A stretch of 64,000 nucleotides of DNA from Bacteroidales bacterium (GTDB lineage Bacteria; Bacteroidota; Bacteroidia; Bacteroidales; F082), in NCBI GenBank assembly GCA_017439405.1, contig JAFSJF010000069.1, positions 62,001-126,000 on the forward strand. The letters are read 5' to 3'. Under the pieces are notes generated by a model, which saw only the letters and a program-made list of their open reading frames with translations, was not told the origin of the DNA and made no database searches. Both the position numbers and the translations under genes were made by a program. Below are positions 28,932 through 48,007 of the stretch, piece by piece; positions within the stretch are counted from its first letter, which is position 1; every line of letters begins with the position of its first letter.

Positions 28932-31247
28932 TCATTGCACCACGAGCCTTCGCCGAAGCTCCACGCCGTCTTCGTCGACGCAACGGAGCGTGTAGGTGCC
29001 GCGCTCCACGTCGATGGGCATCTGGTGGTTGAGGCGCGTTTGGCCCATGAACGTGTCGTTCAAGCTCCAGAAGATGGTCTTTTGCGGGTTGCGATGCGCG
29101 ACTTCGAACACCACCTGCTGGCGGTCGCCACGGATGCCGATGGGAATGGTCACCTTGGCGTCGGCCTTGGGGTAGACGAAGTCCATCACGTCGTCGGGAT
29201 GGGCCGCGCCGCAGCCCGGATAGAACGCCGGCATGGGGCGGAACAGCGGCGAGTGCTTCTTGTAGAACCACTCCATGACGGGCGGCAGGACGTAGAACAC
29301 GTCGTAGCACTTCTGGTCAACGGGATAGCAGTCGGGCAGCACGCGATATTGCCGCGACGCGTCCAAGAACACCTTTTTATGATAGGGACACACGCCCGTG
29401 TGGTTCTCCACGTTGCAGACGCGGATTCTCTTCGTGTTTTGGCAATACTCCGACTTGGGGTAGCCCGACTCGGCACAGACCTCAATCTCAACGCTTTCCG
29501 ACGTGTTGGCGGGATAGCTGTAGCTGCTGTTGAGTTTCCCCATGACATCGAACAGCAGCGGTGCCGCTGCGCCCACGCCCGTCAGGCCCGGGCGGCCTTC
29601 GCCGTCGGCATTGCCCACCCAAACGCCCACCACATAGCGGTCGGTGAGGCCCACCGCCCAAGCGTCCTTGAAGCCAAAGCTGGTGCCCGTCTTCCAAGCC
29701 ACCTGCCGCGACGAGGCGAAACCGCCCCACCCTACCTGGCTCACGGGGCGTGTCAGGCCGAGCATCACATGGAAGGTCTCGGCAATGGCCTCCGCCGAAA
29801 AGGGCGACTCGGATTCGTCAATCTTAACGTCGTAATCCTCATTGACATACGAAGCCAACTTGCGACCCATCTTGGCGTAGGCGTTGGTGATGTCGAACAG
29901 CGAGGCCTCCGCGCCACCCACGATGAGCGACAGGCCGTAATGCTCGGCACTGAACACAATGCCGCGCAGCTGCAAACGCTTCAGCAAGGCATGGAACTTG
30001 GGCTGGCCAAATTCGCGCAGCAGGTGCACAAACGGCGCGTTGAGCGAGTTCTGCAAGGCCTTGTCGGCAGGCACCGCGCCCCAATACTCGCCGCTGTAGT
30101 TCTTCGGCGTGAACCCCGAAAGGCTCATAGGCACGTCGGGCAACATCATTTGCGGGAGCAACGTCCCTTCGTCGAGCATGGCCGCGAAGAGAAAAGGCTT
30201 GAGGATGCTGCCCGTGGAGCGTTGCGCCCGCACCATATCGACCATGCGGGCATCGTCGGCATCCCAGTTGTTGCCGACGTAAGCGACCACTTCATCGTTC
30301 AGGAAGTCAACCACATACACGGCAGCGTTGTCGATGCTGTTCAGCACGCTCAGCTCGTGGTGGTGCTTCATGATGTCGATGACCGCCTGCTGCAAGTTGA
30401 TGTCGATCGTCGAGGCGATTTGCTTCCCATGGTGGCGTTTTTCCTCCTCGGCGAGGTAGTGATAGGCCAACATCGGCATCTCGAAAGGCCGCGCGGGGAT
30501 GTCCTCCATCATGGCCAATTCCGCGTCTTCTTCCGAAAGTTTAGGCATGCGGAAGCGTTTGGGAATGAAGGTCTTGGAGTTTGGCAAACGCTGTAGCAAC
30601 TCATTTCTTTTTTGTTCCAGGCGGTCGCGCGAGCGTCCAGGGTGAATCAGCGCAGGCGAATTGGGCAGCACCGCGAGGGTGGCCGCCTCAGCCCAAGAGA
30701 GTTCTTCGGGAGTGGTGTGGAAATAGCGCCACGCCGCCGCGTCGATGCCCACCACATTGCCCCCGAAAGGCGCATTGGCGGCATACATGTTGAGGATGGA
30801 CTTCTTGGAATAGCGCAGTTCGAGCCGCATGGCCAAGATGACCTCCCACAGTTTCTCGGCATAGGTTCGTGGTGGGTTGTCGCGCGACATGCGCACCACC
30901 TGCATCGAGAGCGTGCTGCCGCCGCGCACCACCTCCCCTGCCTTCACGTTGTCGACAAACGCCTTGACGAACGACACGGGGTTGAAGCCCGGATGAAAGA
31001 AGAACCAACGGTCCTCGTATTCAAGGAGGCAGGCGATGTACTTCGGGGAATAGCGGTCCGAGGCGGGGAAACGCCACTGCCCGTCGTCGGCGATCTTCGC
31101 GCCGAGCAGTTCGCCGTTCCTCGCTGTCAAGACGGTGGAATAAGGCTTGTCGAAACGTGGCGTGGGGATGCAGAGGAAGGCGAGGAAAAGGGCTATTACA
31201 GCCAGCAATACTATTTTGAGCTTTTTATGTTTTTTGGAAAATTGCAT
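28932..31247 (-). CDS. pbpC: Penicillin-binding protein 1C
   Basis: A 771-residue bifunctional peptidoglycan synthase. A transmembrane anchor is at about residues 11-28. The glycosyltransferase (GT51) domain has YEDRWFFFHPG at 77-87 and GGSTLSMQ at 109-116. The transpeptidase domain has STGSILKP, with the active-site Ser-x-x-Lys at 347-350. Later motifs include WKTGTSFGFKD (the KTG box). A C-terminal BiPBP_C-type domain follows. Its usual genomic partner is the alpha-2-macroglobulin lipoprotein, which here lies 11 kb upstream on the same strand. The six-gene island lies between them, and its last gene ends about 80 bases before pbpC, so pbpC may now depend on the island's transcript. Confidence 0.95.
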   Translation of the reverse strand: MQFSKKHKKLKIVLLAVIALFLAFLCIPTPRFDKPYSTVLTARNGELLGAKIADDGQWRFPASDRYSPKYIACLLEYEDRWFFFHPGFNPVSFVKAFVDNVKAGEVVRGGSTLSMQVVRMSRDNPPRTYAEKLWEVILAMRLELRYSKKSILNMYAANAPFGGNVVGIDAAAWRYFHTTPEELSWAEAATLAVLPNSPALIHPGRSRDRLEQKRNELLQRLPNSKTFIPKRFRMPKLSEEDAELAMMEDIPARPFEMPMLAYHYLAEEEKRHHGKQIASTIDINLQQAVIDIMKHHHELSVLNSIDNAAVYVVDFLNDEVVAYVGNNWDADDARMVDMVRAQRSTGSILKPFLFAAMLDEGTLLPQMMLPDVPMSLSGFTPKNYSGEYWGAVPADKALQNSLNAPFVHLLREFGQPKFHALLKRLQLRGIVFSAEHYGLSLIVGGAEASLFDITNAYAKMGRKLASYVNEDYDVKIDESESPFSAEAIAETFHVMLGLTRPVSQVGWGGFASSRQVAWKTGTSFGFKDAWAVGLTDRYVVGVWVGNADGEGRPGLTGVGAAAPLLFDVMGKLNSSYSYPANTSESVEIEVCAESGYPKSEYCQNTKRIRVCNVENHTGVCPYHKKVFLDASRQYRVLPDCYPVDQKCYDVFYVLPPVMEWFYKKHSPLFRPMPAFYPGCGAAHPDDVMDFVYPKADAKVTIPIGIRGDRQQVVFEVAHRNPQKTIFWSLNDTFMGQTRLNHQMPIDVERGTYTLRCVDEDGVELRRRLVVQ

Positions 31248-31259
31248 TGGAAAGGTTGG

Positions 31260-31319
31260 TTTACTCCCTCATTTACTCATTTATTTACCCACTTATTTAC
31301 TCATTTATTTACTCAAAAT
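31260..31319. repeat. 12-bp tandem repeat at the island end
   Basis: Five copies of a 12-base unit (TTTACTCATTTA) between the stop of the AlbA_2 gene and the pbpC start, marking the pbpC-side boundary of the island. Confidence 0.85.
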
Positions 31320-31327: not shown

Positions 31328-32737
31328 CTACTTCATAATTTGCTCATCAATATATAATCCACCTGATTTTCTGGATCCTTTATAACTAATAACACCAACC
31401 CGCTTCAACTCAGCCAAATAACGGTCAATACTTTTCTTGGGCATTCCTGTTGCATTACCAATCTCATTTGACTTAATCCCTGGTTGAGTTTCAATTTCCT
31501 TGAGAACGGACAACATTTTTTGTTTGACATTTAAAGAAATATCAGGGAAATAAGTATTCAGCAGCTTTTGGAGACGGGCACTATCATCATTCTTGCGCTG
31601 TAATTGAACTTGAAGGAATGATACTTTCACAATCTGACCGGTTATCGTAAACGAAGGTATCGCAAAACCATTAGATTTGCAATCAGCCAACATACGGGGA
31701 ATACCTGTTCCTCTCATTTCTATCAGTCGGCGATAATAACAATGGAAGGCGATGTCGGGATTCCTTAGCAATGAATAGGGTGAATTACCAAACTCAATGA
31801 ACGTAAGAATTGGCTCCGTTACGCCATAATTGGCAATATCCAGATGGTTGGGATATACAGAAATCTGCAAAAAACCTTGATAGGAATTATAATCCCGATG
31901 AACAATGGCATTCATAATGCCTTCCCTAACCGCTATTCTCGGATAATTCCAACGTTCCGTGCGCAGGAGACCGTCGATCTTGACAACTTTCGAATAGCAA
32001 TTGTCAATGAATTGGAATATCGCGTCCACATTCTTGAACACGTTGCCTTCGTAATTCTGTGAATCAATCAAATCTGAGGCGGATTCAGAAGAAAAAACAG
32101 ATAGTTTTATACCAGATTGAACAACAAACCGCATGGGGTTTTTGGCGTAAAGGACAATGCAGGCGTTGGTCAGATTGCCATTCTGAATAAGTCCTGTTTC
32201 TGTCAAGAAAGATTCTTCATCAGCACTGATTCTCGAAGTCGATTGCCGATACAATTCCATCGTCTTGCGCACCTCTTCCAAGTCCAAGTCGTCTATGCTG
32301 GCACTTAACACAGGCATTCTCTCCCAATTGGCATCAGCGGTTTTTCGGTCGGCAATCAATTGATTCATTCCCGAAGCCGAGCCCTGGCCTTCTCTTTGGT
32401 AAATTATGCCCTTATAGGAGTATGGTTTTTGGGTGCCTTCCCACACTCGTATCAATAACAGGTTTTTCTCTTGATACACAATACTCTGTATATCTATAGG
32501 AGCAGCAGGTTGGATGTCGAATGTCAAATCGTTCAGCAACCGATCTACATTTACTTGAGATTTCAATCCGACAACATTCTTGTTCGCATCAACACCAACC
32601 AAAATGTCTCCGCCATGGGTGTTCAACATGATGGTGACTGCCTTTGCAATGCTGTCTTTAGTCATGGATTTTCTGAACTCAAGGCTATCGCTCTTGTTTT
32701 GTCTCAGCAGATTATCTATGATGAAAGTATTATCCAT
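31328..32737 (-). CDS. AlbA_2 / HATPase_c_4 protein (last gene of the island)
   Basis: A 469-residue protein. The N-terminal AlbA_2 (Schlafen-like) domain has SDSLEFRKS and NTHGGDILVGVD at 39-50. A GHKL ATPase domain follows with VREGIMNAIVHRDY at 270-283 (N box) and RGTGIPRM at about 342-349 (G box). The C-terminal winged helix (KSNEIGNATGMPKKSIDRYL, AELKRVGVI) is typical for DNA binding. Such proteins act as regulators or as parts of defence loci. It overlaps the DUF4062 gene upstream by eight bases and is the last gene of the operon. Whether it controls the operon or works in the system is not known. Confidence 0.85.
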   Translation of the reverse strand: MDNTFIIDNLLRQNKSDSLEFRKSMTKDSIAKAVTIMLNTHGGDILVGVDANKNVVGLKSQVNVDRLLNDLTFDIQPAAPIDIQSIVYQEKNLLLIRVWEGTQKPYSYKGIIYQREGQGSASGMNQLIADRKTADANWERMPVLSASIDDLDLEEVRKTMELYRQSTSRISADEESFLTETGLIQNGNLTNACIVLYAKNPMRFVVQSGIKLSVFSSESASDLIDSQNYEGNVFKNVDAIFQFIDNCYSKVVKIDGLLRTERWNYPRIAVREGIMNAIVHRDYNSYQGFLQISVYPNHLDIANYGVTEPILTFIEFGNSPYSLLRNPDIAFHCYYRRLIEMRGTGIPRMLADCKSNGFAIPSFTITGQIVKVSFLQVQLQRKNDDSARLQKLLNTYFPDISLNVKQKMLSVLKEIETQPGIKSNEIGNATGMPKKSIDRYLAELKRVGVISYKGSRKSGGLYIDEQIMK

Positions 32738-33299
32738 TGTTTTCCTCCTTGTTCATTAAGTGATTGATAAAATCCTTGTCGCTGAATTGCGTATTCAGAT
32801 AAATGGCTATATCCTCAAAAGTAAAGTATGGCTGAACCCAATTGCCGGTTCTCGCCTCAACGGGTGTACCCGATTGGATGACGAAGTCGTACATTTCCAA
32901 ACATAACGGATCAAAGAACTTCTTATCCTTGAACCTAACATTTTCAGGATATTCCATTTTCTTGAACAATTCTCGGGAAAAAGTGACGTCCCTGTGCACC
33001 AAAAACCAATAGGGCTTTTTGAGTTCAATGGCTTTCTTCATCTCCTCGAAGGTGATGTTTTTGTTACCAATATATCCTGTTCCGCATTGTGTACGAATGA
33101 TGCCCAAAAACAGGTCGCAATCTTCCACTGCCTTTAAGCAGTTTTCCAAATTCGAAAGTTTTGGGTTCACTTTGATGGTCCCCAAATGCGAGTTCCATAC
33201 ATTATAGCCCAACTCTTTCAACAGCGCGCAGATTTGAACAATGTCCCGCTCAAATCCGTACACTGAGGTGCTGAGCATTATGGTTGGCGTTAAAATCAT
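32730..33299 (-). CDS. DUF4062 protein
   Basis: A 189-residue protein with a DUF4062 domain. The pattern MLSTSVYGFERDIVQICALL at the start, CDLFLGIIRTQCGTGYIG and ITFEEMKKAIELKKPYWFLV fit this TIR-like or deoxyribosyltransferase-like Rossmann fold, often seen at the N-terminus of defence NTPases. Here it stands alone with no ATPase fused. It begins nine bases after the HD-ATPase stop and overlaps the AlbA_2 gene. It could be a sensor or nucleotide-binding partner for its neighbours. Confidence 0.8.
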   Translation of the reverse strand: MILTPTIMLSTSVYGFERDIVQICALLKELGYNVWNSHLGTIKVNPKLSNLENCLKAVEDCDLFLGIIRTQCGTGYIGNKNITFEEMKKAIELKKPYWFLVHRDVTFSRELFKKMEYPENVRFKDKKFFDPLCLEMYDFVIQSGTPVEARTGNWVQPYFTFEDIAIYLNTQFSDKDFINHLMNKEENNG

Positions 33300-33308
33300 A
33301 TTATTTTT

Positions 33309-36300
33309 CTACTTAATGTCTTCTAAAATAGTACCATTGGGAAAAACGTGAACATGATCTTTATACTGTTCCCAAAAAGAAATAGGGATTAACTTAACTA
33401 ATTCATTTCTAGTACATTTTCCAGCTTTTATAAAAGTATTAGCTTTGTTGTCATGCTCACCAGTCACGATTATGCTCCAACCTTCAGTTACTCCTTTATA
33501 ATAAGAAGGATTTGTTTCTTTATATACCTCAAGTTCTTTAATCCTTTCGTCAGAGAGTTCTCTTGGCGCAATATATGCAGTTAATACTAATTTACATTGC
33601 TTATTGTCCATGTTATTTAACGCTTTTATGTCTGAGAAATAAAAGCCAGGGCGTTTATTATATAAAGAACGAATATGTTTCTGCCCTTTATATAAATCTT
33701 TTTCTTCATGATAAAGTCCAAGTTCTTCATCGACTTCAAAAGGGTTTTGATCATAAAAAGCAGCAATACCATTAGAGTAATTGTCGATTTTCTTGATCTG
33801 ATTACTTATCACCCAGTTACGAGGATGTGGTTCAACTAAGTCAAAAAGAAAATCAGGAATGATAGGGTACAAATTAGAAATAATATCATAATTATCAAAG
33901 GTGTGACCATAATTATTCGTTCGCACAAGGAACTTTGTACCAACGAATTCATCTTCTAAGCTAAGACTTATAATAGAATCATTATGAGTGCAAACGCAGC
34001 AAACATCAACTTTGTTTTCTCTCACTTGTATATCTGTTGCGGTGAACAATTTGTTTAATACAATGTTTTTAGAAACACTATTGAGCTTGCAAAAATCATA
34101 ATTCGGGAATTCTACCTTTTCTTTTTGGATAAACTCACCGACAGTTAGCTCGTCTCCAATAAACGAAGACAAATTATTCCAGCTAATGTCATTATAAATG
34201 CTTTTAGAAAGGGTTTCGATAAAAACGCTGGAGGAATAGCAAAAGTTATCGAAAATGCTTTTCCAAACCATATTATATAACGTGGTCCCTTGACATATTT
34301 TGTATTTGTCGATATGTTCGTGTGTTTTTTCAATAGCTTGTTCTATAACCATCCTTATAATCTCTTTCGAGATATCCTCATATTTTCCATCCTCTTCATT
34401 AATAATAGTTGTTCTGTCAAGGCTTAGCCGAGGACGATTCTCTCCACAGAAGTTGACAAGCCCATGGTGTGCAAGAATCTCTGAAAAAGAAAACACTCCA
34501 AGCCCACTTTGACTTAAGGAAATCCCATCTACGCAAACCCCACTAGAGTATTTAATCGGGATGTTGTTCATTACATTGTATCCGTATGATTCAATTCCAG
34601 GCTTAGGTAATTTCATTATTGTCTTGTATTGAATCCCTTTATGATGGATTTCAAAAACACTACAATCGACGAGATCAATATAATCTTGCAATTTGAAGTC
34701 ACAAACATCCCCAAACATATTGATTCGTGCGTCTATTGCATTTAAATCAGCGATTTGTAGTGTTTTCGAGCTGTAAACAAAAGGTTTGCTTATAACTTTT
34801 TGCAAGTTTTTGCTGTCCCATTTGACATACAACTCAATTTGTTCAGGTATGATAGTTACATATTCATCTAAAATCTTGTACAAGCTGTTTTCCCAATTGT
34901 TGTAATCTTCTTTTAAATCTGGACGTAATCGTTGTATAAAGCCATGGTTATCATATGAAATAAAACCAATATTACTAATTTCCTTAGTGTTTATCTTTTC
35001 CCTATACTCCTCCTTCAAATAAACTTTTACCAATGTGCCAGAGCTACGAATAGAGTCTGTGTCATTTTTTGACGGGTTTTTATAATAAAAAAACTCGCGA
35101 GGACCATCTAGTGAACAAGCAAGGTAATCTCCACTTTCTTCTTTAGTGATGATTTCTATTTTATTGCCGATGATAAAGCATGATAGAATCCCAATTCCGA
35201 ACTGTGATGTAGGAGTGAATTTAAACCCAGTCTCAGCCTGATTCTGATAAAAATCTGGCGATTGATAGTAAGAACTTCCTATTTTTAAAAGATAGTTTTC
35301 TATTATTGTCTTTGACATCCCTTTGCCGTTGTCCAAACAATACAGATATTTTTCCCCATTCTCCGTTTCTATTCCAAATTCAATAAACCCTTTAAAAAGT
35401 TTTCCTACAGCATCATCTTTTGCAATCTGGCATCTACACGCATCCAATGAATTTTGATACAATTCTCTTATGCAAGCAAAACTATTCTTATATAAGCCGA
35501 CACCCATTAATAATTCTAGAATCTTTGTCTGATTCAAAGTGAATTTAAGTCCTGGAACAGGAGTAAATATCGAACTGTCGAATGTTATATTTGATCTGTC
35601 AACTTTATCTGTTATGGGAATATGATACTTATTGTCCCATGAGGTTTTTAATCGTTGGAACAATCTTAATTCATTATCAATCCAATTAATGTAATTGTTC
35701 AAATCATAATAATCCGCCGGAATAGTAAAAAAGGCTCTATACGCAATGGCTCCGTTTTTAATATTATAGTTTACACCATTAGACTTTATCTTCCATTGGC
35801 CAAAACTATAATCCGAATCAAACTGCTTTAAAGATCGTAGTTCTAACGGCGCTCGCTCATTGCTAAAATGGACAATATCGCCTATCCTCATTAACATGGC
35901 AATAAATTGCAAATTATTGGAATCACATCCATAATACTCAATGTGTGTTCCCAGATTGCCAAGAAACTTTGGAGCCTCTCCGTGTGCTTTACAAATAGAG
36001 GCTAAATCTGTCGCTATTCGTTGTCCCAATCCAGAAACAGGAAAGTCCGAAAACTTTGTATTTCCCCAATTCTTAATGTATTCGTAGATTCTCTTATGAT
36101 GTGTTTGTCTAATATATTCAATACGTAACGACTGATTAGTCTTTGTAAAGTTATCGCATGATTTAATAACAGAAAAATTGCCGTTCCTGAACTCTTGGTA
36201 TTCAATTAAAAGACCTGATAAATATTCAATAAGATCGTTTTCCGAATGCGGCACAAACAGCCAATTTTGTATTTCCTTATTAAAATCTTGGTAAATTGCA

Positions 36301-36719
36301 TCTTTGTTCTTTGTTATAAATGCCTTTGCTTCCTTTTGGGTAAAGCATTTCTTCCCATCATTTTTGAGAGAATCCTTGTTAATAAACTTATCTTGTGTTC
36401 CCTCCGTTAGTTCCATCACTTTCATCTCATAATCTGAGATCGCCATACCACAATCATGAAGGTATGCAGACACTATTATGAAAAACAATTCAAATGAAGA
36501 CAAGCTGTTTGCATTATCACCTAATAGATTTTCAATAATTCCTAATACGGCTTCGCTATGGGTTGAATCATGCAAATCAAATTCTGGCATAGTACTTGAC
36601 ACATGCTTAAGATGATTTGTAGCTCGTTTCATAATAGATTGAGCCTCTGTAAACAACCAAGAAGCAATGCCATCTGTTGCGTCAATTCGATTTTTGAGAA
36701 TATCTATCAGTTTAGCCAT
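33309..36719 (-). CDS. HD-domain plus Hsp90-type ATPase
   Basis: An 1136-residue protein. Residues about 45-285 form an HD-type region with HDSTHSEAV (50-58) and YLHDCGMA (86-93, the His-Asp pair). Residues about 405-600 form a GHKL ATPase of the Hsp90 kind: IRELYQNSLDACR (N box, 417-429), DNGKGM (463-468) and SQFGIGILSCF (505-515, the lid glycines). The last 500 residues match nothing I recognise. The HD part may be a phosphohydrolase and the Hsp90 part a conformational ATPase that senses a ligand. Very AT-rich compared with the flanks, which suggests transfer. It lies 17 bases after hsdS and nine before DUF4062. Confidence 0.85.
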   Translation of the reverse strand: MAKLIDILKNRIDATDGIASWLFTEAQSIMKRATNHLKHVSSTMPEFDLHDSTHSEAVLGIIENLLGDNANSLSSFELFFIIVSAYLHDCGMAISDYEMKVMELTEGTQDKFINKDSLKNDGKKCFTQKEAKAFITKNKDAIYQDFNKEIQNWLFVPHSENDLIEYLSGLLIEYQEFRNGNFSVIKSCDNFTKTNQSLRIEYIRQTHHKRIYEYIKNWGNTKFSDFPVSGLGQRIATDLASICKAHGEAPKFLGNLGTHIEYYGCDSNNLQFIAMLMRIGDIVHFSNERAPLELRSLKQFDSDYSFGQWKIKSNGVNYNIKNGAIAYRAFFTIPADYYDLNNYINWIDNELRLFQRLKTSWDNKYHIPITDKVDRSNITFDSSIFTPVPGLKFTLNQTKILELLMGVGLYKNSFACIRELYQNSLDACRCQIAKDDAVGKLFKGFIEFGIETENGEKYLYCLDNGKGMSKTIIENYLLKIGSSYYQSPDFYQNQAETGFKFTPTSQFGIGILSCFIIGNKIEIITKEESGDYLACSLDGPREFFYYKNPSKNDTDSIRSSGTLVKVYLKEEYREKINTKEISNIGFISYDNHGFIQRLRPDLKEDYNNWENSLYKILDEYVTIIPEQIELYVKWDSKNLQKVISKPFVYSSKTLQIADLNAIDARINMFGDVCDFKLQDYIDLVDCSVFEIHHKGIQYKTIMKLPKPGIESYGYNVMNNIPIKYSSGVCVDGISLSQSGLGVFSFSEILAHHGLVNFCGENRPRLSLDRTTIINEEDGKYEDISKEIIRMVIEQAIEKTHEHIDKYKICQGTTLYNMVWKSIFDNFCYSSSVFIETLSKSIYNDISWNNLSSFIGDELTVGEFIQKEKVEFPNYDFCKLNSVSKNIVLNKLFTATDIQVRENKVDVCCVCTHNDSIISLSLEDEFVGTKFLVRTNNYGHTFDNYDIISNLYPIIPDFLFDLVEPHPRNWVISNQIKKIDNYSNGIAAFYDQNPFEVDEELGLYHEEKDLYKGQKHIRSLYNKRPGFYFSDIKALNNMDNKQCKLVLTAYIAPRELSDERIKELEVYKETNPSYYKGVTEGWSIIVTGEHDNKANTFIKAGKCTRNELVKLIPISFWEQYKDHVHVFPNGTILEDIK

Positions 36720-36736
36720 CTATTTTTCAGTAGTTT

Positions 36737-38089
36737 TTATGTAAGTGATGTTCCTAAAATTATTCCTTCAACCTCTCTCTTTGCCTGCTCCAATATCGCC
36801 TTTCCTTCTTCTTGCAGTGCTTTTGCTTGTTGACGCATTTCTGTGATATGGAAAACTATTTCTTGCTGCTTAGACAAAGAAACTACAGGTATCCATAATT
36901 GTCCTAAATCATCCGGATAAACATGAGGTTGTCCTGCACCTTGTTGAAGTAAATAAATAAGTGATTGTTGTGCTTTTAAAACCTCAAACACATATTTCGT
37001 CAAGAATTGACCATTCTTTGAATGTATTACGCTACAATCTGACGCAAAAATAGGATTGTCATGATACCACACATAACCAGAATATGCACCAGATGCACTT
37101 ACGGTAATCACATCGCCCTTGAAATTGTATTTATCATGATTATATGGGCTTGTTTGACCACCAGCAATAACAGGATATTGTCCGTTTTTGTTTACCTTGT
37201 CACTTGTAATAGAATCGCCTTTTTCTATTGTGGTAATTTGTTTCAATTGAACATTTTCGTATGTCTCACTTTTTGCATATTCTCCCAAAAACAGAACACT
37301 TTTAGGATCCATTCTGCCATCGCGAATCTCACTTATGTTTACAGTAAAAATTCTGTCCTGCAACGTTTGTAAATTTATTTCCGGAAGTTTAATGCCTAAC
37401 TCGCCAAGCAAATAATCATCAACACTATTTAAAATATCTTCGGCTTGTTGCTCTTTTTGTTGTTTTTTTCGATATGCATCACTTAAAAAAACGACAATCT
37501 CTTTTTGCTTGGATAAATCAGGAAGAGGTATTTCTAGAGATTGATACTCTTCGGCATTGATGTTCGGCTGAGCGCTAGGACGTTGGATCGCATTTACCCA
37601 TTCTTTATATGAGTTTAATTGGGTATAAGAAAAAAGATAGCCTGGTAGTATTTTTTTGGAATCGACGAGAAAGCGAATTAAATAACCTGCATACAGACAG
37701 GTGTATGGTAATTCCTTATGTAAATATGTCTTTCCTACTGTCGCTCCACTTCTTGCAATCAGGATGTCATTGTTATTAAGAATGTACTTTTCTTCAACAT
37801 TAGCAACGGTCGCTCCGAGTTCATTTATAGAAATCAAACCATTTTCATCAATATCTGTAATCCTAATGTATCTTGGTTGTGTGTTGTTCAAACGATCAAG
37901 ACCAGCTTCATTTGCTCCATATTGAGGTTTACTCAAAAGCAAGTTTTTGAGTTTCACCATAGGGAATAAAGCATTTTGCACTTTTTTATTGTAAAGCGTC
38001 ATCTTAGGATCAAATCTTCCCTTTATCTCTGAGCGATTGACAAGGAAAATCTTGTTTGGGTCAATATTTTGTGGAACTTGATAATTCAT
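36737..38089 (-). CDS. hsdS: Type I restriction-modification specificity subunit (HsdS)
   Basis: A 450-residue specificity subunit with two target-recognition domains, about residues 40-200 (ITDIDENGLISINEL, NNDILIARSGATVGKTYL, LEIPLPDLSKQKEIV) and about 270-430 (GDVITVSASGAYSGYVWYH, LWIPVVSLSKQQEIV). Each is followed by a helical spacer (QKEIVVFLSDAYRKKQQKEQ; QQEIVFHITEMRQQAKALQE), the part that measures the gap between half-sites. It decides the DNA sequence recognised by the methyltransferase. It begins two bases after the DGQHR-TIR gene and is followed by the HD-ATPase gene. Complete as seen. Confidence 0.92.
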   Translation of the reverse strand: MNYQVPQNIDPNKIFLVNRSEIKGRFDPKMTLYNKKVQNALFPMVKLKNLLLSKPQYGANEAGLDRLNNTQPRYIRITDIDENGLISINELGATVANVEEKYILNNNDILIARSGATVGKTYLHKELPYTCLYAGYLIRFLVDSKKILPGYLFSYTQLNSYKEWVNAIQRPSAQPNINAEEYQSLEIPLPDLSKQKEIVVFLSDAYRKKQQKEQQAEDILNSVDDYLLGELGIKLPEINLQTLQDRIFTVNISEIRDGRMDPKSVLFLGEYAKSETYENVQLKQITTIEKGDSITSDKVNKNGQYPVIAGGQTSPYNHDKYNFKGDVITVSASGAYSGYVWYHDNPIFASDCSVIHSKNGQFLTKYVFEVLKAQQSLIYLLQQGAGQPHVYPDDLGQLWIPVVSLSKQQEIVFHITEMRQQAKALQEEGKAILEQAKREVEGIILGTSLT

Positions 38090-38091
38090 AA

Positions 38092-39591
38092 CTAATCTGA
38101 AACTAGACCATAATTATTCTTCAAAATCTCAATAATATTGTCCTTTGCTATTCTCCCAAGCGAAATACTACGGCAACTATCGTCGTATTCATGCCAAGTG
38201 TCATTCTGAATGTCTGATTTTGTTGGCTTACTATTCTTTCTTTTGACAATAACAACTTTCTTTTCCAAAGCCCTTGCCCACCCCAGTTCATAGAGAACAT
38301 TGGCATTGTTATCTGTTATGTCTGCAAAGACTATTTTTGCTTCTTTTATCTTATTGATAATGTCTTGTATTTGATCCCCCGTTGCTCCTTTATTACACAT
38401 AATTGGAAACAAAGAGATATTGAATCTCTTTTCTTCCGCAATACCAGTGATAACATCTGAGTATATCTTGTTGTATTCTTCTATTATTTCTGCGTTCCCT
38501 TCAAAATAGGGCATTGCCACAAATACTTTGATTTCTTGTGATATAAGTTTATCAAAGATTCTGATAATAGAACTTGCTTTTACTTCTTTAATTTCAAAGA
38601 TATGATTATTAAAGATCCAATTCTTGAATGCATTGTATTTGTCAATACCATTAATATGATACCATAGGAAAGCGGTTAAGAGCCCAAAACTGTCATTTGC
38701 TTTTAGATTGGCATTGTCATTATATAACTGACTTACGGCCTGCAACGAATTTGATACTTTCTCAACCGCCGCATCTTCATCGATTCCTGCAATGAGTAGT
38801 CTGTGAAAAATATCATTAAAATATGTGCGGTAATTATTATTCAGGATATGGCTTATCCCAATAAATATATCTGGATTGACTCTGTTTATAAGTCTTCTCG
38901 TGAGTATCGAGTGCCTCCCTGCAAAAATGTCCTCTAATTCTTCATCTGGGAAATTATCTGTATCATCGATCATTACTTTCAAATTCTCTTCTGAAGTAAG
39001 GGGGATTGTTTTGGTGTTAATATTATGGAAGAAGACTTTGACTGCTTTATCAAAATTCTTAGACACGTCATTATTAATGCAACAATCTTTCGCATCATAA
39101 TATTCAGTACCCAATAATAAACAAAAAGGAATAACCATTCTTCCAACTTTATCGCTGCTGGATTGTTCGGCAGCGTTGAGTCTGTGATTACCATCAATTC
39201 TGTGAAAGGGCTTTTCTATACCCTCATCTAATTTCAGCTCAGCAACTTTAACAGGAAGAGCATTATTGTCTTTTGGATTGACAACTTTTATAGATATTTC
39301 AGTATTATCACCTCTGACATTTGACTTATAACTTCTTCCTTCCTGGATGAGTTTTAGAGGTTCTCCTTTTTTCTCGTCAAATTTATACCTGAATTTGTAA
39401 CTCAAGATAACTTCGGGAAAAAACAAATAGGTTTGAGTTTCCAAAAAATCACTTATATCGGACCTGTCAAGCAACCCCCTTTGATATGAGTAATCTGCTT
39501 CAGATAAACGAGCCAACTCTTTTATATTTGCAAAACCACGAATACAAAGTTGTCCATTAAGAGAATTATCTAAAATACCTTGAATAATCAT
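38092..39591 (-). CDS. DGQHR-like / TIR-like fusion protein of unknown function
   Basis: A 499-residue protein. The N-terminal half has HRIDGNHRLNAAEQ at 130-143, the signature of the DGQHR/ParB-like group that includes DndB of phosphorothioate systems. A mostly helical linker follows (about 240-345). The C-terminal domain at about 354-455 opens KVFVAMPYFEG and has IVFADITDNNANVLYELGWA, a Rossmann-like fold of the TIR / nucleoside-2-deoxyribosyltransferase kind, with a candidate catalytic Glu435. It overlaps the methylase gene by four bases and stops two bases before hsdS, so it is built into the RM operon. A plausible reading is a DNA-state sensor joined to an NAD- or nucleotide-acting effector; this is inference. 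Confidence 0.8.
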   Translation of the reverse strand: MIIQGILDNSLNGQLCIRGFANIKELARLSEADYSYQRGLLDRSDISDFLETQTYLFFPEVILSYKFRYKFDEKKGEPLKLIQEGRSYKSNVRGDNTEISIKVVNPKDNNALPVKVAELKLDEGIEKPFHRIDGNHRLNAAEQSSSDKVGRMVIPFCLLLGTEYYDAKDCCINNDVSKNFDKAVKVFFHNINTKTIPLTSEENLKVMIDDTDNFPDEELEDIFAGRHSILTRRLINRVNPDIFIGISHILNNNYRTYFNDIFHRLLIAGIDEDAAVEKVSNSLQAVSQLYNDNANLKANDSFGLLTAFLWYHINGIDKYNAFKNWIFNNHIFEIKEVKASSIIRIFDKLISQEIKVFVAMPYFEGNAEIIEEYNKIYSDVITGIAEEKRFNISLFPIMCNKGATGDQIQDIINKIKEAKIVFADITDNNANVLYELGWARALEKKVVIVKRKNSKPTKSDIQNDTWHEYDDSCRSISLGRIAKDNIIEILKNNYGLVSD

Positions 39592-41765
39592 AACTTATCG
39601 GATTCTATAGTTTTTATAAACTTCTTTAATTCTTCACCAATAACATCCAACTCATTATTAGCCGTTTTCTTTCCAGTGGCATCATAACCTATTTCATCAG
39701 CAATAGCCATGAAAATAGGATAATCAGGAAGTTTTCTCTGTTTGGTTTGTTGGTATTCCTCTATCAATTGAGTTTTAAGCTCCTCTACTTTGCTGGCATA
39801 TTCGGCAAGCAGTTCCGAATTCCAAGTTTTATACTCCTCGGTTTGCTTTGCAGCCGTAGTTGTTATTCTTTGCCTTGTCTTTATGTCATTTGCTTTGTCT
39901 CTCTGCTTTTCCCTAATTTCCAAATCCCAAGTCTGACGATGCAAAAGATAATTGCTGTTTTTCAACAATTTGGATTCAATGTCCTTCTTTGCATCAACAA
40001 GTTCCTTGGTCTGTTCTTTTTTCCACTTCTTAAGGAATAATACTGAACTCTTCACGCCAGCACCATTAGCCGTGAATGCGGTTTGAGGCATACTAACCAC
40101 TGCAACGATGCGGAACCAGTCTTCGATTTGGGTCCTCACATATTGCATACTGCTATTGGTCAAAATGCCGTCGGGCAGGACTATCGCCAAGTATCCTCCT
40201 TCTCTCAAGTACCTGTAGTTTTGCTCAATGAAAAGCACTTCGGTGTTTTGCCCATCACGAGTGTTTTCTGGCAGTGCTTTCACAGCCAGCCAATCTTCTT
40301 CTTTCTTGCCCAATTGATAGGTTTTCAGATAAGCCTGCTCGCTCTGGCGGATTGAACTGCCAAAAGGCGGATTGGTTATGATGAAATCAAAAGTGCCATA
40401 CTTGAAACCGTGATTATTCGTCTTTGCCTGCAATGCTTCGTCCGAAACCAAACCATCGGAAGTGATGACATTGGTGTGGCCATCGTCATGGATGATCATA
40501 TTCATCTTGGCGGATCGTGAAATTTGTTCGCTTATTTCTATCCCATATAGATTGTTTTGTGCAAAATCATGCCAATATGGGAACCACTTGGCATATTGCT
40601 TGGTATCATTCTTCCAGTTCGGATAATATTCCGTAGCTTGATTGCGTACTTTGTTGAGCGCATACAACAAGAAACCACCACTTCCACAAGATGTGTCTAG
40701 CACTTTTGAATCATGTTTGATCGGAAGCACATCAACAATAAAATCCACTATCTCGCGAGGTGTAAAATACTGTCCAAAATTGCCTCTGAAGAACGAACCC
40801 ATGAAAGTTTCAAAAGCACGGCCCTTGCTATCAAGGTCTGTATCACCCAAATTTACGCTTTCAAGATAACTCACGACCGTTCTAATCTTCTCGGGTGTTA
40901 ATCTGATATTGTCACGGAAAACCTCGGCATCACGTTTCCTACCCTCCTCATAAAGTGCTTTCACACGATTATATAGATTATCATTCTCAATCAATCGGCG
41001 TTTGCGCTCATCCTTTTCCTCTGTCTTGGGCACTGTGATGATTTGGAAATCATACGGATCGCCAACATTTCTCGCTTTTCTTTCGTCCCATATCTTACAG
41101 AAAATCAGTTTATCCAATTCGTCAAATGCTTCCGAAGGGTTCAGTTGTCCACCTGCCCACAGTGCTTCATGCGCCTGCTTGAATCTACGAGTCAATTCTG
41201 ATTGGTCTATGACAGAAAGATCAAAGAACTTTTGTTTGCCTTTTTCTTCAGGAAGGTACTGTGCACCATAAACATATTTATATGTTGCAATGCTATCCAC
41301 TCCAAACTGAGGAATATCAGGCAATTGATTCCTTGTGTTTTGGCTTTTATCGACTTCAAAATAATCAGATTTGATGCCAGATGTTACCCAAACATATTTC
41401 ACATCGGAAGGCAAAGCAAAGGCATAACTATAGGCTTGCTCTATCGCTTGCTGGTATTCTGCCTCACTGACTTCTTGCCGCTTACATTCAACCAAAATGT
41501 GCGGACTTAAACACATTTCATCGGCATAAACAACAATATCAGCCTCTTTGACTTCTCGACCCATTGTTACTGGAACAAATTGCCTAATTCTACTGACAGG
41601 ATAATTGTAATCCAAAATCAACTTGAGGAAGGTCTCAGCCTGTACCTTTTCTTCTGGATTATTATAATTCCGTTCCTTGTTTTGGAACAAATATGTAATT
41701 CTGGACTTGTCTTCATTGAAAGAAATCAGTCCTTTTTCTATTCCTAATTGTATGTAATCCTTCAT
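39588..41765 (-). CDS. Type I-like methyltransferase fused to an HsdR-N nuclease domain
   Basis: A 725-residue fusion. Residues about 35-130 form an HsdR N-terminal-type PD-(D/E)XK nuclease (ADIVVY with Asp76; LVECKRQ with Glu93 and Lys95). A helical region follows, then an N6-adenine methylase: FTPREIVDFI, DTSCGSGGF at 357-365 (AdoMet motif I) and ITNPPFGS with NPPF at 465-468 (motif IV). The end is helical, for contact with HsdS. It has the modification and cutting activities but no helicase or translocase, so it may act as a type IIG-like enzyme together with HsdS. It is the first gene of the six-gene operon, with a promoter box at 41802. Confidence 0.88.
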   Translation of the reverse strand: MKDYIQLGIEKGLISFNEDKSRITYLFQNKERNYNNPEEKVQAETFLKLILDYNYPVSRIRQFVPVTMGREVKEADIVVYADEMCLSPHILVECKRQEVSEAEYQQAIEQAYSYAFALPSDVKYVWVTSGIKSDYFEVDKSQNTRNQLPDIPQFGVDSIATYKYVYGAQYLPEEKGKQKFFDLSVIDQSELTRRFKQAHEALWAGGQLNPSEAFDELDKLIFCKIWDERKARNVGDPYDFQIITVPKTEEKDERKRRLIENDNLYNRVKALYEEGRKRDAEVFRDNIRLTPEKIRTVVSYLESVNLGDTDLDSKGRAFETFMGSFFRGNFGQYFTPREIVDFIVDVLPIKHDSKVLDTSCGSGGFLLYALNKVRNQATEYYPNWKNDTKQYAKWFPYWHDFAQNNLYGIEISEQISRSAKMNMIIHDDGHTNVITSDGLVSDEALQAKTNNHGFKYGTFDFIITNPPFGSSIRQSEQAYLKTYQLGKKEEDWLAVKALPENTRDGQNTEVLFIEQNYRYLREGGYLAIVLPDGILTNSSMQYVRTQIEDWFRIVAVVSMPQTAFTANGAGVKSSVLFLKKWKKEQTKELVDAKKDIESKLLKNSNYLLHRQTWDLEIREKQRDKANDIKTRQRITTTAAKQTEEYKTWNSELLAEYASKVEELKTQLIEEYQQTKQRKLPDYPIFMAIADEIGYDATGKKTANNELDVIGEELKKFIKTIESDKL

Positions 41766-41926: not shown

Positions 41927-42301
41927 TCACATTTTCTGCAACAGCGCGTCAGTTCCAAGCTCCATCCGCCCAAAAGCGAACCACTTTTTCCCCAAGTCCT
42001 TCAGCGATGCGCCAATATGATAAACCGTATCGTCTATGCAAAGAAAACGGTCGTGGACTTCTTGAACTTGTAAGAAATCCTTACAAGCTGCCTCTTTTTC
42101 AAGTTCGCGTTCCTTGTAAACATTATTGATGTGAATCGTAATGTTTTGTGATGTCGTATCAAACAGCCACGACATTTGCCTTTGGGTAAGCCAAACCGTT
42201 TCTTCCGACAGCTGGACTTCCAATTGCACGGCATCGTCATCGCTGTGATAAACAACAACAGAACTACTTTCAGGTTGATATATTGCCAATTCTTTGTCCA
42301 T
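41927..42301 (-). CDS. RhuM-like protein with phospholipase D-like end, probably shortened
   Basis: A 124-residue protein. Residues about 24-75 match the start of RhuM-family proteins (VQLSEETVWLTQRQMSWLFD, ITIHINNVYKERELEKEA). Then, after VQ, the sequence jumps to EVHDRFLCIDDTVYHIGASL plus KDLGKKWFAF, an HxRxxxxD pattern like the phospholipase D active site. Proteins with each part are normally 250-350 residues, so this may be an internal-deletion remnant, although the frame is kept. It lies between the alpha-2-macroglobulin terminator and the island operon. Confidence 0.6.
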   Translation of the reverse strand: MDKELAIYQPESSSVVVYHSDDDAVQLEVQLSEETVWLTQRQMSWLFDTTSQNITIHINNVYKERELEKEAACKDFLQVQEVHDRFLCIDDTVYHIGASLKDLGKKWFAFGRMELGTDALLQKM

Positions 42302-42450: not shown

Positions 42451-45400
42451 TTACTTCACCACACACCCACGGGCCGGAATCTGGTAATAGATCTCGGCGT
42501 TGTACATGTCCTCGCAGCGCACGGCGGGAATCATGTAGTTGCCCTCGTAGGTGGCGTTGGCCTTCAGGGTGAAGGTCTTCTTCGCGCCCGGCATCAGGTC
42601 GAAGTAGAAGTAGGCTCGGTCGTCGCGGAGGTCGATGTGCTTGGCGCCGGTGTTGGTCTCGCCACCGGTCATGCGATCGTTCACCAACTCCCAGCCCGAA
42701 GGCAGGTAATACGACAGGGCCAACTCCGTCACCCGATACTCGCTCGGGTTCTGCACCGTCATCTGGATACGGAGGTCGGTGCCAACGTTCAAGTTGGTCA
42801 AATTCACGGGATTGCCGTTCTTGTCGGTGTAGTTCACCGCCATGCGAATGGTGTTGCCACCTTCTTCCATATCGTATTCGGCCACTGCGGTCTTGGTGAA
42901 CACGTTTGCGACCAACTTCTGGCTGCCGTTGTTCTTGATTTCCACGGTGTTGCTGCCCACCTTCGGCACAAAGCCGAAGCCTGCTGCACTCATGTTGGTG
43001 TTCAGCGTGTGTTCCTCTCCATTGGCTTTCACCACGGCGGAGAGGTTTTCGCCCGAAACGCCTTGCTGCTCGGCGTATTTGCCCAGTACAAAGAGCGCGA
43101 AGGCCGTCGACTGGGTGTCCAACCAGCGACCGCTGTTCAAGATTCCGCACAGCGCGTTGATGTTGCTCCTGACGGTTTGCGCGTCGGTGCCGCACAGCAT
43201 CTGGGCGTAGGTCAGGAAGGCGAGGTCGCGGGTGGTGGAGCCAAACGAAGTGTAGTAGTCCGACATCTGCTCACCCTCGCTAACGTAAGGCATCAGGTTT
43301 TGCGCCACGGTGGTCTTGCCGGTCTGCGCGAAGGCCGCTGCGGTGATGGCTTGCGTGAGCGTGTAGTTCATCTCCATTTCCTTGAAGCGGTTCATCGCGC
43401 CCATCTCAGGAGCGCCAGCCAAGGCCAACACGAAGAGGCGGTAGGCCTGGATGGTCTCGCCCTGCTTGTAGTCGGGGTTGTTCTTCCACTGCTTGGCCTT
43501 GCTTGACTGATAGCTCTTGAGGCCGTCGATGAAGTATTGCGGCACGTCGAAGCCTTGTTTTTGGGCCTCAACGAGGAAATGCAAGGCGTAGATTTCGGTC
43601 CACGGGTCACTATAGGTGCCTCCGGCCCAGTTGGTCAAGGAGTTGTCCGACTTCTGGTAGGAGCGCAGGTTGGCGATGGCGGCCTCGATGTTGCTCCGCG
43701 TGTTGGCTTGGCCGTTTTCGTCCTGCTGCATGAAATAGCCGAGATACAGTTGCGGGAAGGCCTTCGAGGTAGTTTGCTCAAGGCAGCCGTGCGGATAGAA
43801 GGTCAGGAAGTCGAGACGGCTGAACAGGTCGACAGGCAGCAGCGACGACACCGTCACCTTGCCTTGTTGCGTGCCGGCCATGCCCGCGAGGTTGAACGGG
43901 ATGCTCAGCGACTGTCCGCCCTCGATTTCCTTCATGATGGTGTTGCGACGCTCGGCGTAAGGCATTCGGATGGGCATCGTCGTCGACGACTCGGCGGTGT
44001 AGCTGCCGTCGCTCACGCTCACCTTCATCACGGCGTTGCCGGAGGTTTGCGGGACGTTGGTCTGCACGGCTATCAAGCCCTCGCCGTTCTGGTCGATGCT
44101 GACCGAGGTGGGCAGCGTGCCCACGGCGTTGAGGTTCTGGTTGTCGAACTTCACCGACAGCGTCTTGCCCTTGAGCGTGGGCGACAGCACCTGCACCTTC
44201 ATCGTCAGTCCGTCGCCAGGGGCCACCACACGCGGCGCAGAAGCGTAGAGCGTGATTGGATCGACGACGGTCATCTTCTTCTCCGCGCTGCCGAAGGCTT
44301 TCTTGTCGCCTTTGGCAATCACCATGAAGCGCAGCGCGCCTGAGCATTGCGGCACCTCAAACTCGTGCGTGTTGCTCGCGCCGGCCTTCAGCTCGAAGGG
44401 GCCGAGGGTGACGGCGTAGGCCTTGAAGCGGTTGTCCAAAGTGATTTCCTGGTTGAGGATGCCGTCGCCACCGATGGCATAGACGGAACCCAACTCGCCG
44501 CTGAAGGCATCGATGACGTTGCTGTAGTTGTCCCAAGTGCGCACCTTCAGCGACTGCTTGCTGTTGAAGTAGCCGTAAGGATTCGGCGTGCTGAAGTTGG
44601 TCAGGCCAAGGATGCCCTCGTCGACCACAGCCAAGGTGTAGGTCATGGCTTGCTTGTTGGCCTCGCTCACCTTCACTTCGATTTTCTTCTTCGTGTTGGC
44701 CGTTTCGGGCATGGTGAGGGCGGGTTGCAGTTGCATCTTCTTGTCTTCCACCTTCACGGGCACCACGCCGTAGAGCCTGATGGGCAGGTCGTTGGCGGCA
44801 TCATGGGGCTGAATCAGGGCGACATAGACATACACATTCGGGACCATGTCGGCGGTGGCGGTGAGTTCCACCCTACCCTCTTCGCCGAGGTTTTCGAGGA
44901 ACAGGGTCTGCATCACCTTGTCGTTGGCCTCGACGGTGACGAGGGCCTTGGCCTTGTCGTTGGCGGGGAAGGTCACCACAATCTTGTCGCCCACTTGGTA
45001 GCCGTCGGCGGTGGTCTTCATCGAGAGCTGTGCCGGTGCACCCGAGGCCGACGCGCTGTGGCCATAGCCCCAGTCGAAACTGATGACCTTGGCGAAGGTG
45101 TGGCCTCCCTGCGTGTCGTTGACGACGAGAAGATAGCTGCCCCAGTTCTCGTTGCTGATGTTGAACGTCACGGAGGTGGTGCCGTTGCAGGTCAGCTTGC
45201 CGTTCTTGACGGGTTTCTTGTAAGTGCCTGAGGCATAGCGTTGCAGACTGTATTCATCCTCACTCGACCACCACCAGTAGGAATCCAACTTGTAGAGCGC
45301 GTAGTCAAGCGAAACCACCGAATTGTTGAGCTTCCCGTCCTCGTTGACGACGGCCACGTTGAACTTCCAGTCCTTGCCGGTGTCGTAGTAGCTGCCGTAT

Positions 45401-47964: not shown

Positions 47965-47999
47965 ATTGAAAAAATTTGATTGTTTCGCAATAACGCCCA

Positions 48000-48007
48000 C
48001 AAAGATA
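48000..48007 (-). promoter_or_regulatory. Promoter -7 box for alpha-2-macroglobulin
   Basis: TATCTTTG on the minus strand, 36 bases upstream of the start at 47964. Confidence 0.7.

What the first reader, a model, noticed from the sequence alone, without database searches (positions are those of the whole stretch)
31328..41765. Six-gene operon joining a nuclease-methyltransferase RM core to HD-Hsp90, DUF4062, DGQHR-TIR and AlbA_2 proteins
Six minus-strand genes overlap or are separated by at most 17 bases, with one likely promoter upstream. They encode a PD-(D/E)XK-methylase fusion, a DGQHR-like/TIR-like fusion, HsdS, an 1136-residue HD plus Hsp90-type ATPase, a lone DUF4062 protein and an AlbA_2/HATPase protein. 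I know of no named system with this set. The close packing suggests the extra genes work with the RM core, perhaps as a back-up response when methylation or self-marking fails. The region is visibly more AT-rich than its flanks.
Basis: partly seen in the sequence, partly recalled or inferred. Interest (0 to 1): 0.85.

Follow-up and report, generated by a model that had tools for sequence, protein, structure and literature searches.

The report
Restriction-modification core with swappable TIR partner
An AT-rich, acquired-looking island in a bacterial genome stacks three separate sets of likely anti-phage genes, the main one being a DNA-cutting-and-marking enzyme that comes with a partner protein built from a DNA-related domain and an interchangeable TIR-like, probably cell-suicide, domain.

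Summary
The six genes are real, tightly packed and AT-rich (36.8% GC against 53.5%), and they sit between two genes that are neighbours in relatives. But they are three modules, not one system.

(1) Genes A-B-C. A (PD-(D/E)XK plus N6-methylase) and C (HsdS) look like a type IIB (BsaXI/BcgI) enzyme. B joins a DGQHR (DndB/GmrS-type) domain to a TIR/nucleoside-deoxyribosyltransferase-like domain. A scan for B alone in one genome each of 84,980 species gave 49 loci; all 49 carry A and C close by. A often occurs without B. The two halves of B have conflicting trees, so the effector half seems to have been swapped.

(2) Gene D (HD plus Hsp90-type ATPase). Relatives lie beside RM genes of several types, or without any. 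None lies in the 49 loci.

(3) Genes E-F (DUF4062 plus AlbA_2/GHKL). A two-gene pair in 13 of 13 assessable close matches besides the window and in both plasmid matches, mostly away from RM genes. A 2026 preprint reports DUF4062 as a TIR-like NADase.

Best reading: a type IIB-like RM enzyme with a TIR/NDT back-up that fires when restriction or marking fails, next to two independent modules. The mechanism of B is inferred; no structure could be predicted.

The parts
39588..41765 (-). Gene A, 725 aa: N-terminal PD-(D/E)XK nuclease (D76, E93-x-K95) fused to N6-adenine methylase (NPPF at 465-468); RM subunit of a type IIB-like enzyme
   Evidence: nearest solved structure RM.BsaXI 8w0p, E 8.1e-46 with a four-sequence profile; catalytic residues conserved in relatives
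38092..39591 (-). Gene B, 499 aa: DGQHR (DndB/GmrS-type) domain with the motifs QR37-38, DGNHR133-137, F188xxxN192, then a TIR/NDT-like domain (about 352-499) with N431-V-x-x-E435
   Evidence: 4-base overlap with A
36737..38089 (-). Gene C, 450 aa: HsdS specificity subunit with two target-recognition domains
   Evidence: Methylase_S 1e-32, two stretches
33309..36719 (-). Gene D, 1136 aa: HD-CE domain (44-352), GHKL/Hsp90-type ATPase (about 392-584), long C-terminal part of unknown fold
32730..33299 (-). Gene E, 189 aa: lone DUF4062 (TIR-like) domain, invariant Glu86 in the ITxxE motif
   Evidence: DUF4062 NADase preprint PMC13174449
31328..32737 (-). Gene F, 469 aa: Schlafen/AlbA_2 domain, GHKL (HATPase_c_4) domain, C-terminal winged-helix-like stretch (weak matches); partner of E, 8-base overlap
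41927..42301 (-). Remnant of a RhuM-like gene at the upstream edge of the island (not part of the working modules)
   Evidence: PADLOC PDC-S05, two stretches in a 124-aa ORF; no Pfam match

Best explanation
The island is a stack of three transferable defence modules. Module 1 (A, C, B) is a type IIB-like restriction-modification enzyme with a third, partner protein. A and C are expected to assemble like BsaXI, two A with one C, methylating or cutting a bipartite site. B carries a DGQHR domain, the family of DndB, DpdB and the NTP-using GmrS, joined to a TIR/NDT-like domain whose catalytic-type glutamate is kept. I think B senses the state of A-C on DNA: unmodified or differently modified foreign DNA, or an RM enzyme blocked by the phage. 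It then switches on its TIR/NDT domain, which destroys NAD+ or nucleotides and stops the infected cell, as PrrC backs up its RM system PrrI. Module 2 (D) is an ATP-driven HD-Hsp90-type protein that attaches to several kinds of RM cassettes. Module 3 (E-F) is a DUF4062 protein, a probable NADase, with an AlbA_2/GHKL partner that probably senses or gates it. Shown: gene content, conservation, close pairing of B with A-C in genomes, conflicting histories of B's two halves, D and E-F found apart from A-C-B. Inferred: enzyme assembly, the trigger, the substrate, cell suicide.
For: B was searched alone in 84,980 genomes: 49 loci, all 49 with A and C nearby, in two orders (12 A-B-C, 37 with B last), 39 of the 48 tabulated loci with a 4-base overlap at a junction; in three loci (L045-L047) 343 to 1301 bases separate C and B. 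Motifs QR/DGNHR/FxxxN are kept, and the effector Glu is kept in 47 of 48 rows with letters there. In A: nuclease D in 45 of 45, E and K in 46 of 47 each, NPPF in 50 of 50. Family scans of 46 B proteins: DGQHR 40, DpdB 17, DndB 15, NDT 17 (E <= 0.1), PADLOC TIR effector model 39 (E <= 0.01). The halves of B have conflicting trees (AU p 0.0005 and 1.6e-82; groups named after seeing the trees), the pattern of a sensor with a swappable effector. B is exchanged or absent over a nearly constant A: L074 A 81%, B 24/32%; G221 A 87%, B 32%; G273 A 78%, no B. E-F pair. D with RM genes of several types. NADase activity and abortive defence by a DUF4062 protein are reported in a preprint (PMC13174449, abstract and passages).
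Against: No activity, trigger or toxicity was measured and no structure was obtained. B is absent beside 10 of 12 close A homologs in a 393-genome sample, so it is probably not needed for restriction. DGQHR relatives DndB (regulation of modification, PMC4507180, abstract start and one passage) and DpdB (recalled) serve modification, not killing, so B could be a helper. The window's own B scores below the curated cut-offs (DGQHR 20.4 of 58.85 bits; Nuc_deoxyrib_tr 21.1 of 28.8). One viral contig (L083) has B with an ORF whose end resembles HsdS but no recognisable A. B is rare: full-length in 3 of 395 sampled genomes of the phylum, the window's included.
Confidence: 0.5

Rival explanations
1. 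B is a helper or regulator of the RM enzyme, like DndB or DpdB: it tunes or extends DNA modification, and the TIR/NDT-like domain is a nucleotide-binding or base-handling part, not a killer.
For: The N-terminal half belongs with DGQHR, DpdB and DndB (40, 17 and 15 of 46); in all 49 genome loci B sits with a methylase gene.
Against: Close A homologs occur without B in 10 of 12 cases. The C-terminal half matches a PADLOC TIR effector model in 39 of 46, keeps its glutamate, and has a history that conflicts with that of the N-terminal half, which suits an effector better than a shared helper step.
Confidence: 0.25
2. The six genes form one dedicated system in which HD-Hsp90, DUF4062 and AlbA_2 proteins act with the RM core.
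For: Spacings of at most 17 bases and two overlaps; one AT-rich island in one insertion site. In one of 13 other E-F loci (L200) a D-like ATPase lies next to E on the other strand.
Against: 0 of 49 B loci show D or E; E-F occurs as a pair in 13 of 13 assessable other loci, 10 of these 13 without a gene resembling A or C in the stretch fetched; D occurs with other RM types or without RM genes.
Confidence: 0.07
3. Pure stacking: all modules, including A-C and B, are independent genes gathered by chance in a defence island.
For: Defence genes cluster (general knowledge); the downstream slot of the core holds very varied genes such as GmrSD, Mrr, McrB-like, RhuM and TIR_2.
Against: 49 of 49 co-occurrence of B with A and C, in about eight phyla by record title and in two gene orders with overlaps, is far from chance for B. 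For D and E-F, stacking is my own reading.
Confidence: 0.06
4. B's NDT-like domain acts on DNA itself: with the DGQHR part it removes or exchanges bases at sites chosen by A-C, as DpdB is thought to assist DpdA in 7-deazaguanine insertion (recalled).
For: DpdB is among the family matches (17 of 46); NDT enzymes exchange bases on deoxyribose (general knowledge).
Against: No base-synthesis or transglycosylase gene is among the window's six genes; known NDT/TIR-like immune effectors act on free nucleotides (general knowledge).
Confidence: 0.05

Closest known systems
Type IIB RM enzymes BsaXI/BcgI (PMC11997821: abstract and passages seen)
   Same: One polypeptide holds nuclease and N6-methylase, with a separate two-domain S subunit; best solved match is RM.BsaXI; a D and an ExK motif of the nuclease site are kept, as BsaXI's D90 and E105-x-K107 (matched by motif, not by a residue alignment).
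   Different: A third gene, B, is present; A is shorter (725 against 916 aa); cutting pattern unknown.
PrrI-PrrC (described in PMC3710099, passages seen)
   Same: An RM enzyme with a linked suicide protein as second line of defence.
   Different: B is a DGQHR-TIR/NDT protein, not an ABC-ATPase/HEPN anticodon nuclease; the RM is IIB-like, not type Ic.
MADS (methylation-associated defense system), seen only as NCBIfam/PADLOC models and in a search listing
   Same: A resembles MAD2 and C resembles MAD5.
   Different: A scores 300.6 bits against a cut-off of 720 and C 73.8 against 400; B, D, E and F match no mad model.
DndB / DpdB / GmrS DGQHR superfamily (PMC4619093, passages seen)
   Same: All three signature motifs (QR, DGxHR, FxxxN) are invariant in 46 aligned B proteins and nearly so in a wider set.
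   Different: Fused to a TIR/NDT-like domain and tied to a type IIB-like RM.
Swarozyc, DUF4062 TIR-like NADases (PMC13174449, preprint; abstract and passages seen)
   Same: E is a DUF4062 protein with a conserved Glu, likely the counterpart of the catalytic Glu of that family (not aligned to it here).
   Different: E has no room for the C-terminal auxiliary domain needed by KpSwz and is instead paired with F.

Membership tests
Type IIB RM (BsaXI/BcgI) | Nuclease and N6-methylase in one subunit | tested here: met
Type IIB RM (BsaXI/BcgI) | Separate S subunit with two target-recognition domains | tested here: met
   two Methylase_S stretches in C
Type IIB RM (BsaXI/BcgI) | Cuts DNA on both sides of a bipartite site; (RM)2S assembly | not testable with these tools
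   Needs protein
DGQHR/DndB superfamily (B, N-terminal half) | QR pair, DGQHR-type pentapeptide, FxxxN | tested here: met
   variant DGNHR. TIGR03187 matched in 40 of 46 at E 0.1, window member below its curated cut-off
TIR/NDT-like effector (B, C-terminal half) | Fold and catalytic glutamate | tested here: inconclusive
   Glu in 47 of 48 rows with letters there; 39 of 46 match a TIR effector model; solved NDT matches only at E 0.08 and 0.14; fold not predicted; activity untested
MADS | MAD2 and MAD5 at their curated cut-offs | tested here: not met
   300.6 of 720 and 73.8 of 400 bits
MADS | Further mad genes beside MAD2/MAD5 | tested here: not met
   B, D, E and F match no mad model at E 0.1
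Dnd or Dpd system | DndCDE or DpdA and partner genes in the locus | tested here: not met
   None among the island's proteins
DUF4062 TIR-like NADase (E) | DUF4062 domain above the gathering score with conserved Glu | tested here: met
   36.6 against 24.7 bits; Glu86 kept in all 16 rows; activity untested
Swarozyc (E) | C-terminal auxiliary domain required for defence | tested here: not met
   E is 189 aa with DUF4062 at 7-90; F is a separate gene
Hsp90/GHKL ATPase (D) | Bergerat-fold motifs N, G1, G2 | tested here: met
   ELYQN-LDAC, DNG-GM and QFGIG invariant in six aligned proteins, window included; PDB matches to Hsp90 N-domains

The most novel reading that the evidence does not exclude
A-C-B is an undescribed class of restriction-modification system in which the readout of DNA modification directly gates a TIR/NDT toxin. 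The DGQHR half of B reads the methylation or engagement state of the A-C enzyme and licenses or holds back a swappable NAD+/nucleotide-destroying half, so that one locus both cuts foreign DNA and kills the cell if cutting fails.
Probability: 0.35. Interest if true: 0.8.

Novelty: new variant of a known kind. Interest (0 to 1): 0.62.

Why it matters
It would make the PrrC-like idea, an RM enzyme with a suicide back-up, a more general, sequence-defined and testable system found in about eight bacterial phyla (by record title), and give the DGQHR domain a direct assay. The apparently swapped effector half gives natural variants for testing which part senses and which part kills. It also shows that E-F and D are separate modules worth testing by themselves.

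Tried and rejected
Six genes as one system: rejected as main reading because D and E are absent from all 49 B loci. MADS: rejected on scores and missing genes. The Leisingera A-B fusion as a 'Rosetta stone': rejected as a functional fusion, because the ORF starts at A residue 127 and its match to A ends at 496, before the match to B begins, so it looks like a deletion remnant. Single strong promoter: not supported. Homology between B's C-terminal half and E by hhalign: not significant (probability 1.7%). Single-sequence scans of genome contigs with D, and of viral contigs with D and B, gave no relative. Phage records: no B, only partial D matches in 4 records. Plasmids: of 12 records with a partial D match, 7 were opened; a type I RM lies about 2.4 kb away in one (Priestia), a lone S gene about 8 kb away in another (Aliarcobacter), none directly beside D. 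The tree-test groups were named after seeing the trees.
Full report
WHAT IS THERE. Six minus-strand ORFs (A-F, in transcription order) lie at 41765-31328 with spacings -4, +2, +17, +9 and -8. GC is 0.368 against 0.535 in the flanks, where no stretch of equal length (steps of 500, flanks joined for the count) falls below 0.514. The island separates the alpha-2-macroglobulin gene (42451-48069) from pbpC (28932-31247). In a search of 21 genomes (the window's own and 20 relatives), 14 others had a pbpC match: in 12 the end of the first gene lies within 150 bases of pbpC, in one (L165) about 0.8 kb away, and one match begins at a contig end. So this looks like an insertion at an intergenic site. 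A RhuM-like remnant lies at the upstream edge (41927-42301), and a 12-base tandem repeat (31260-31307) at the downstream edge. The claimed promoter is not better than chance.

GENES A AND C. A has a HSDR_N_2 nuclease domain and an N6 methylase. With a four-sequence profile (one row the truncated Leisingera chimera), the best solved structure is RM.BsaXI (8w0p, E 8.1e-46), a type IIB enzyme that assembles as (RM)2S (PMC11997821, abstract and passages). Among 52 aligned A rows, the nuclease Asp is kept in 45 of 45 with a letter, Glu and Lys in 46 of 47 each, and NPPF in 50 of 50. In BsaXI D90, E105 and K107 (and E73) are required for cutting; I match them to D76, E93 and K95 by motif only. C has two Methylase_S stretches. 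In architecture A-C is therefore type IIB-like. Cutting and assembly are untested.

GENE B. The N-terminal half belongs to the DGQHR (DndB/DpdB/GmrS) superfamily. PMC4619093 (passages) gives its marks as a QR pair, DGQHR and FxxxN. In 46 B proteins Q37, R38, D133, G134, N135, H136, R137, F188 and N192 are invariant; in the wider set of 52 rows there are single departures at G134, N135 and H136. At E 0.1, TIGR03187 is matched by 40 of 46, DpdB by 17, DndB by 15. The C-terminal half matches nucleoside deoxyribosyltransferase in 17 of 46 and CAP12-type TIR in 4, and PADLOC's TIR effector model in 39 of 46 at E 0.01; solved NDT structures match only weakly (E 0.08 and 0.14). The motif NVxxE, which by my reading carries the NDT/TIR-type glutamate, keeps that Glu in 47 of 48 rows with letters there. 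Retron-Eco1 uses an NDT-like effector (PMC12887533, passages; its reference list names a paper on NAD+-hydrolysing filaments). The window's B itself scores below the curated cut-offs.

B IS TIED TO A AND C. A profile of B alone (A2) was scanned against 84,980 genomes: 176 stretches matched a pattern and 49 loci encode a relative; the exact peptide patterns make this a lower bound. All 49 hold an A and a C near B (L068 is, by its nearly equal length and the same place, the same genome as L030 and was read only). Twelve have the order A-B-C; in 37 B comes last, including two with A in two pieces and one decayed locus, L082. In 39 of the 48 tabulated loci at least one junction is a 4-base overlap; in L045, L046 and L047 there are 1301, 673 and 343 bases between C and B. 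By record titles these span Bacteroidota, Pseudomonadota, Spirochaetota, Bacillota, Desulfobacterota, Nitrospinota, Campylobacterota and Lentisphaeria; several are represented by MAGs only, but isolates are included (for example Chryseobacterium, Flavobacterium, Acinetobacter sp., Sphingomonas, Novosphingobium). Exceptions: a viral contig, L083, with an ORF whose end resembles HsdS and no recognisable A, and a Leisingera plasmid with a truncated A-B chimera. In a 395-genome sample of the phylum, B is full-length in 3, the window's included. The reverse does not hold: of 12 close A homologs (E <= 1e-200) in a 393-genome sample of the order, only 2 have B; of the 10 others 8 have a separate C, one has A and C fused, and in one (L121, near a contig end) no C is seen. 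So B seems to need A-C, but A-C does not need B.

B BEHAVES LIKE A CASSETTE WITH A SWAPPABLE EFFECTOR. Over a nearly constant A, B changes or is absent: L074 has A 81% identical to the window's but B only 24% (N half) and 32% (C half); G221 has A 87%, B 32%; G273 has A 78% and no B but a TIR_2 gene after C. Inside B the two halves conflict. The N-terminal tree joins Flavobacterium-type B (L029, L045, L046) and L050 to the window's clade, while the C-terminal tree joins them to proteobacterial B and puts L047 and L074 with the window. AU tests reject each half's grouping with the other half's data (p 0.0005 and 1.6e-82; groups chosen after seeing the trees). Seven of the 49 loci (L044, L068, L069, L072, L080, L081, L082) were left out of the 46-row profile A4 as duplicates, truncated or broken; the tree set held 48 rows, without the broken or truncated L072, L080, L081 and L082. 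Exchange of the enzymatic half on a kept sensor half is what one expects of a defence sensor-effector protein.

THE DOWNSTREAM SLOT. I scanned 20 chosen ORFs that follow the core (not all that one search lists). They include GmrSD (L046, L051), a McrB-like AAA_5 protein (L055), Mrr (L059, L075), a FokI/Mrr-like nuclease (L041), a CoiA-type nuclease (L050), a DUF5655 protein (L043), RhuM (L061), T5orf172 (L067), TIR_2, GIY-YIG/DUF4357 and Ymh (L035), and an AlbA_2/GHKL protein (L048); 6 of the 20 have no match. D-E-F in the window occupy this slot.

GENE D. HD-CE plus a Hsp90-type ATPase, with all GHKL motifs kept in six aligned proteins. Of these six (window, G388, G993, G849, G856, G1030), three lie directly after an RM gene: HsdS 17 bases (window), the methylase of a type III-like pair 5 bases (G388), an N6_N4 methylase 1 base (G993). 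G849 and G856 lie in an AAA_21-RloB-D-DUF2971 cluster (Pfam-checked in G856), and G1030 is broken into two ORFs without an RM neighbour seen. Among ten distant places looked at, RM genes are close in five: G341 (HsdR, HsdM and an HsdS-like gene), G1026, G993 contig 46 and G882 (Pfam-checked), and G896 (by likeness to G882). Four show none (G133, G093, G373, G808) and one contig is too short. In seven opened plasmid regions (of 12 matches) no RM gene adjoins D. D is thus a repeated but not exclusive companion of RM cassettes, and was not seen in the 49 A-C-B loci.

GENES E AND F. A profile of E found 24 places in 393 genomes. Fifteen are strong (E <= 1e-36); in all 14 of these whose downstream side is on the contig, window included, F follows directly. 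Of the nine weaker places, longer DUF4062 proteins or fragments, one shows an F-like match (L181). Both plasmid matches of E (Hymenobacter, Acinetobacter) are also followed by an F homolog. In the 13 fetched E-F loci, 3 have a gene with weak similarity to A nearby (L192, L193, L197), and one (L200) has a D-like ATPase beside E on the other strand. E-F is therefore its own module. A 2026 preprint (PMC13174449; abstract and passages) reports that DUF4062 is a TIR-like NADase family and that one member gives abortive phage defence ('Swarozyc') that needs a conserved Glu and an auxiliary domain. E keeps an invariant Glu (Glu86, 16 of 16 rows) but has no such auxiliary domain, so F is the likely sensor or gate (inference).

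HOW IT PROBABLY WORKS. A-C marks and cuts DNA. B, through its DGQHR half, reads the state of the DNA or of A-C and unleashes its TIR/NDT half when restriction fails. The precedent is PrrC kept inactive by its RM system PrrI (PMC3710099, passages), a paper that also proposes RM-linked toxins as multi-layer defence. The helper reading (DndB/DpdB-like) is the main rival. D and E-F add further, separate layers.

NOVELTY. The literature searches 'DGQHR' (6 papers), 'DGQHR' with 'TIR' (1, unrelated by title), 'nucleoside deoxyribosyltransferase' with 'restriction-modification' and 'anti-phage' (2), and 'restriction-modification' with 'TIR domain', 'specificity subunit' and 'DndB' (0) showed no description of A-C-B in the listings. 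Searches for the E-F pair ('DUF4062' with 'Schlafen', 0; with 'phage defense', 1) and for D ('Hsp90-like ATPase' with 'HD domain' and 'restriction-modification', 1; 'HD-CE' with 'Hsp90' and 'conflict systems', 0) led only to the papers cited above. The library lacks most subscription journals, and DefenseFinder was not available. I rate it a new variant of a known kind (RM plus linked effector), with a mechanism that could prove new.

Noticed in passing
window 41927-42301: Short ORF holding two separated stretches of a RhuM-like protein, apparently an internally deleted remnant at the island's upstream edge.
   Followed up: partly
window 31260-31307: Imperfect 12-base tandem repeat (TTTACTCATTTA type) between F and pbpC, at the island's downstream edge.
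   Followed up: no
window 16001-18000: A second GC dip (0.426) in an otherwise 50-57% GC stretch; possibly another acquired segment.
   Followed up: no
window 28152-28580: 142-aa ORF that looks like a PIN-domain (VapC-like) protein, by eye only.
   Followed up: no
L120 3383-7003 (-): A and C homologs fused in one 1207-aa ORF, a single-chain version of the same RM type.
   Followed up: no
L118 10450-12474 (+): In a genome of the same genus, A-C without B is followed by a 674-aa GHKL/Hsp90-type ATPase and a YhcG nuclease, echoing the place of D.
   Followed up: partly
L121 574-1419 (-), L123 10639-11499 (+): A Bro-N gene directly follows A in the place where B sits in the window (in L123 it lies between A and C), a possible alternative cargo.
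   Followed up: partly
L140 6496-19201, L141: Cluster AAA_21-RloB-D homolog-DUF2971-752 aa-1256 aa in two genomes of the window's genus, the last two proteins without Pfam match; looks like another defence cassette.
   Followed up: partly
L051, L046, L055, L059, L075: Modification-dependent (type IV) restriction genes (GmrSD, McrB-like, Mrr) lie right after the A-C-B core in several loci.
   Followed up: partly
L200 3-1796 (-): A D-like ATPase lies next to an E-F pair on the other strand in one genome.
   Followed up: no
L083: Viral contig with B next to an ORF that carries an HsdS-like C-terminal end on a foreign N-terminal part, and no A.
   Followed up: partly
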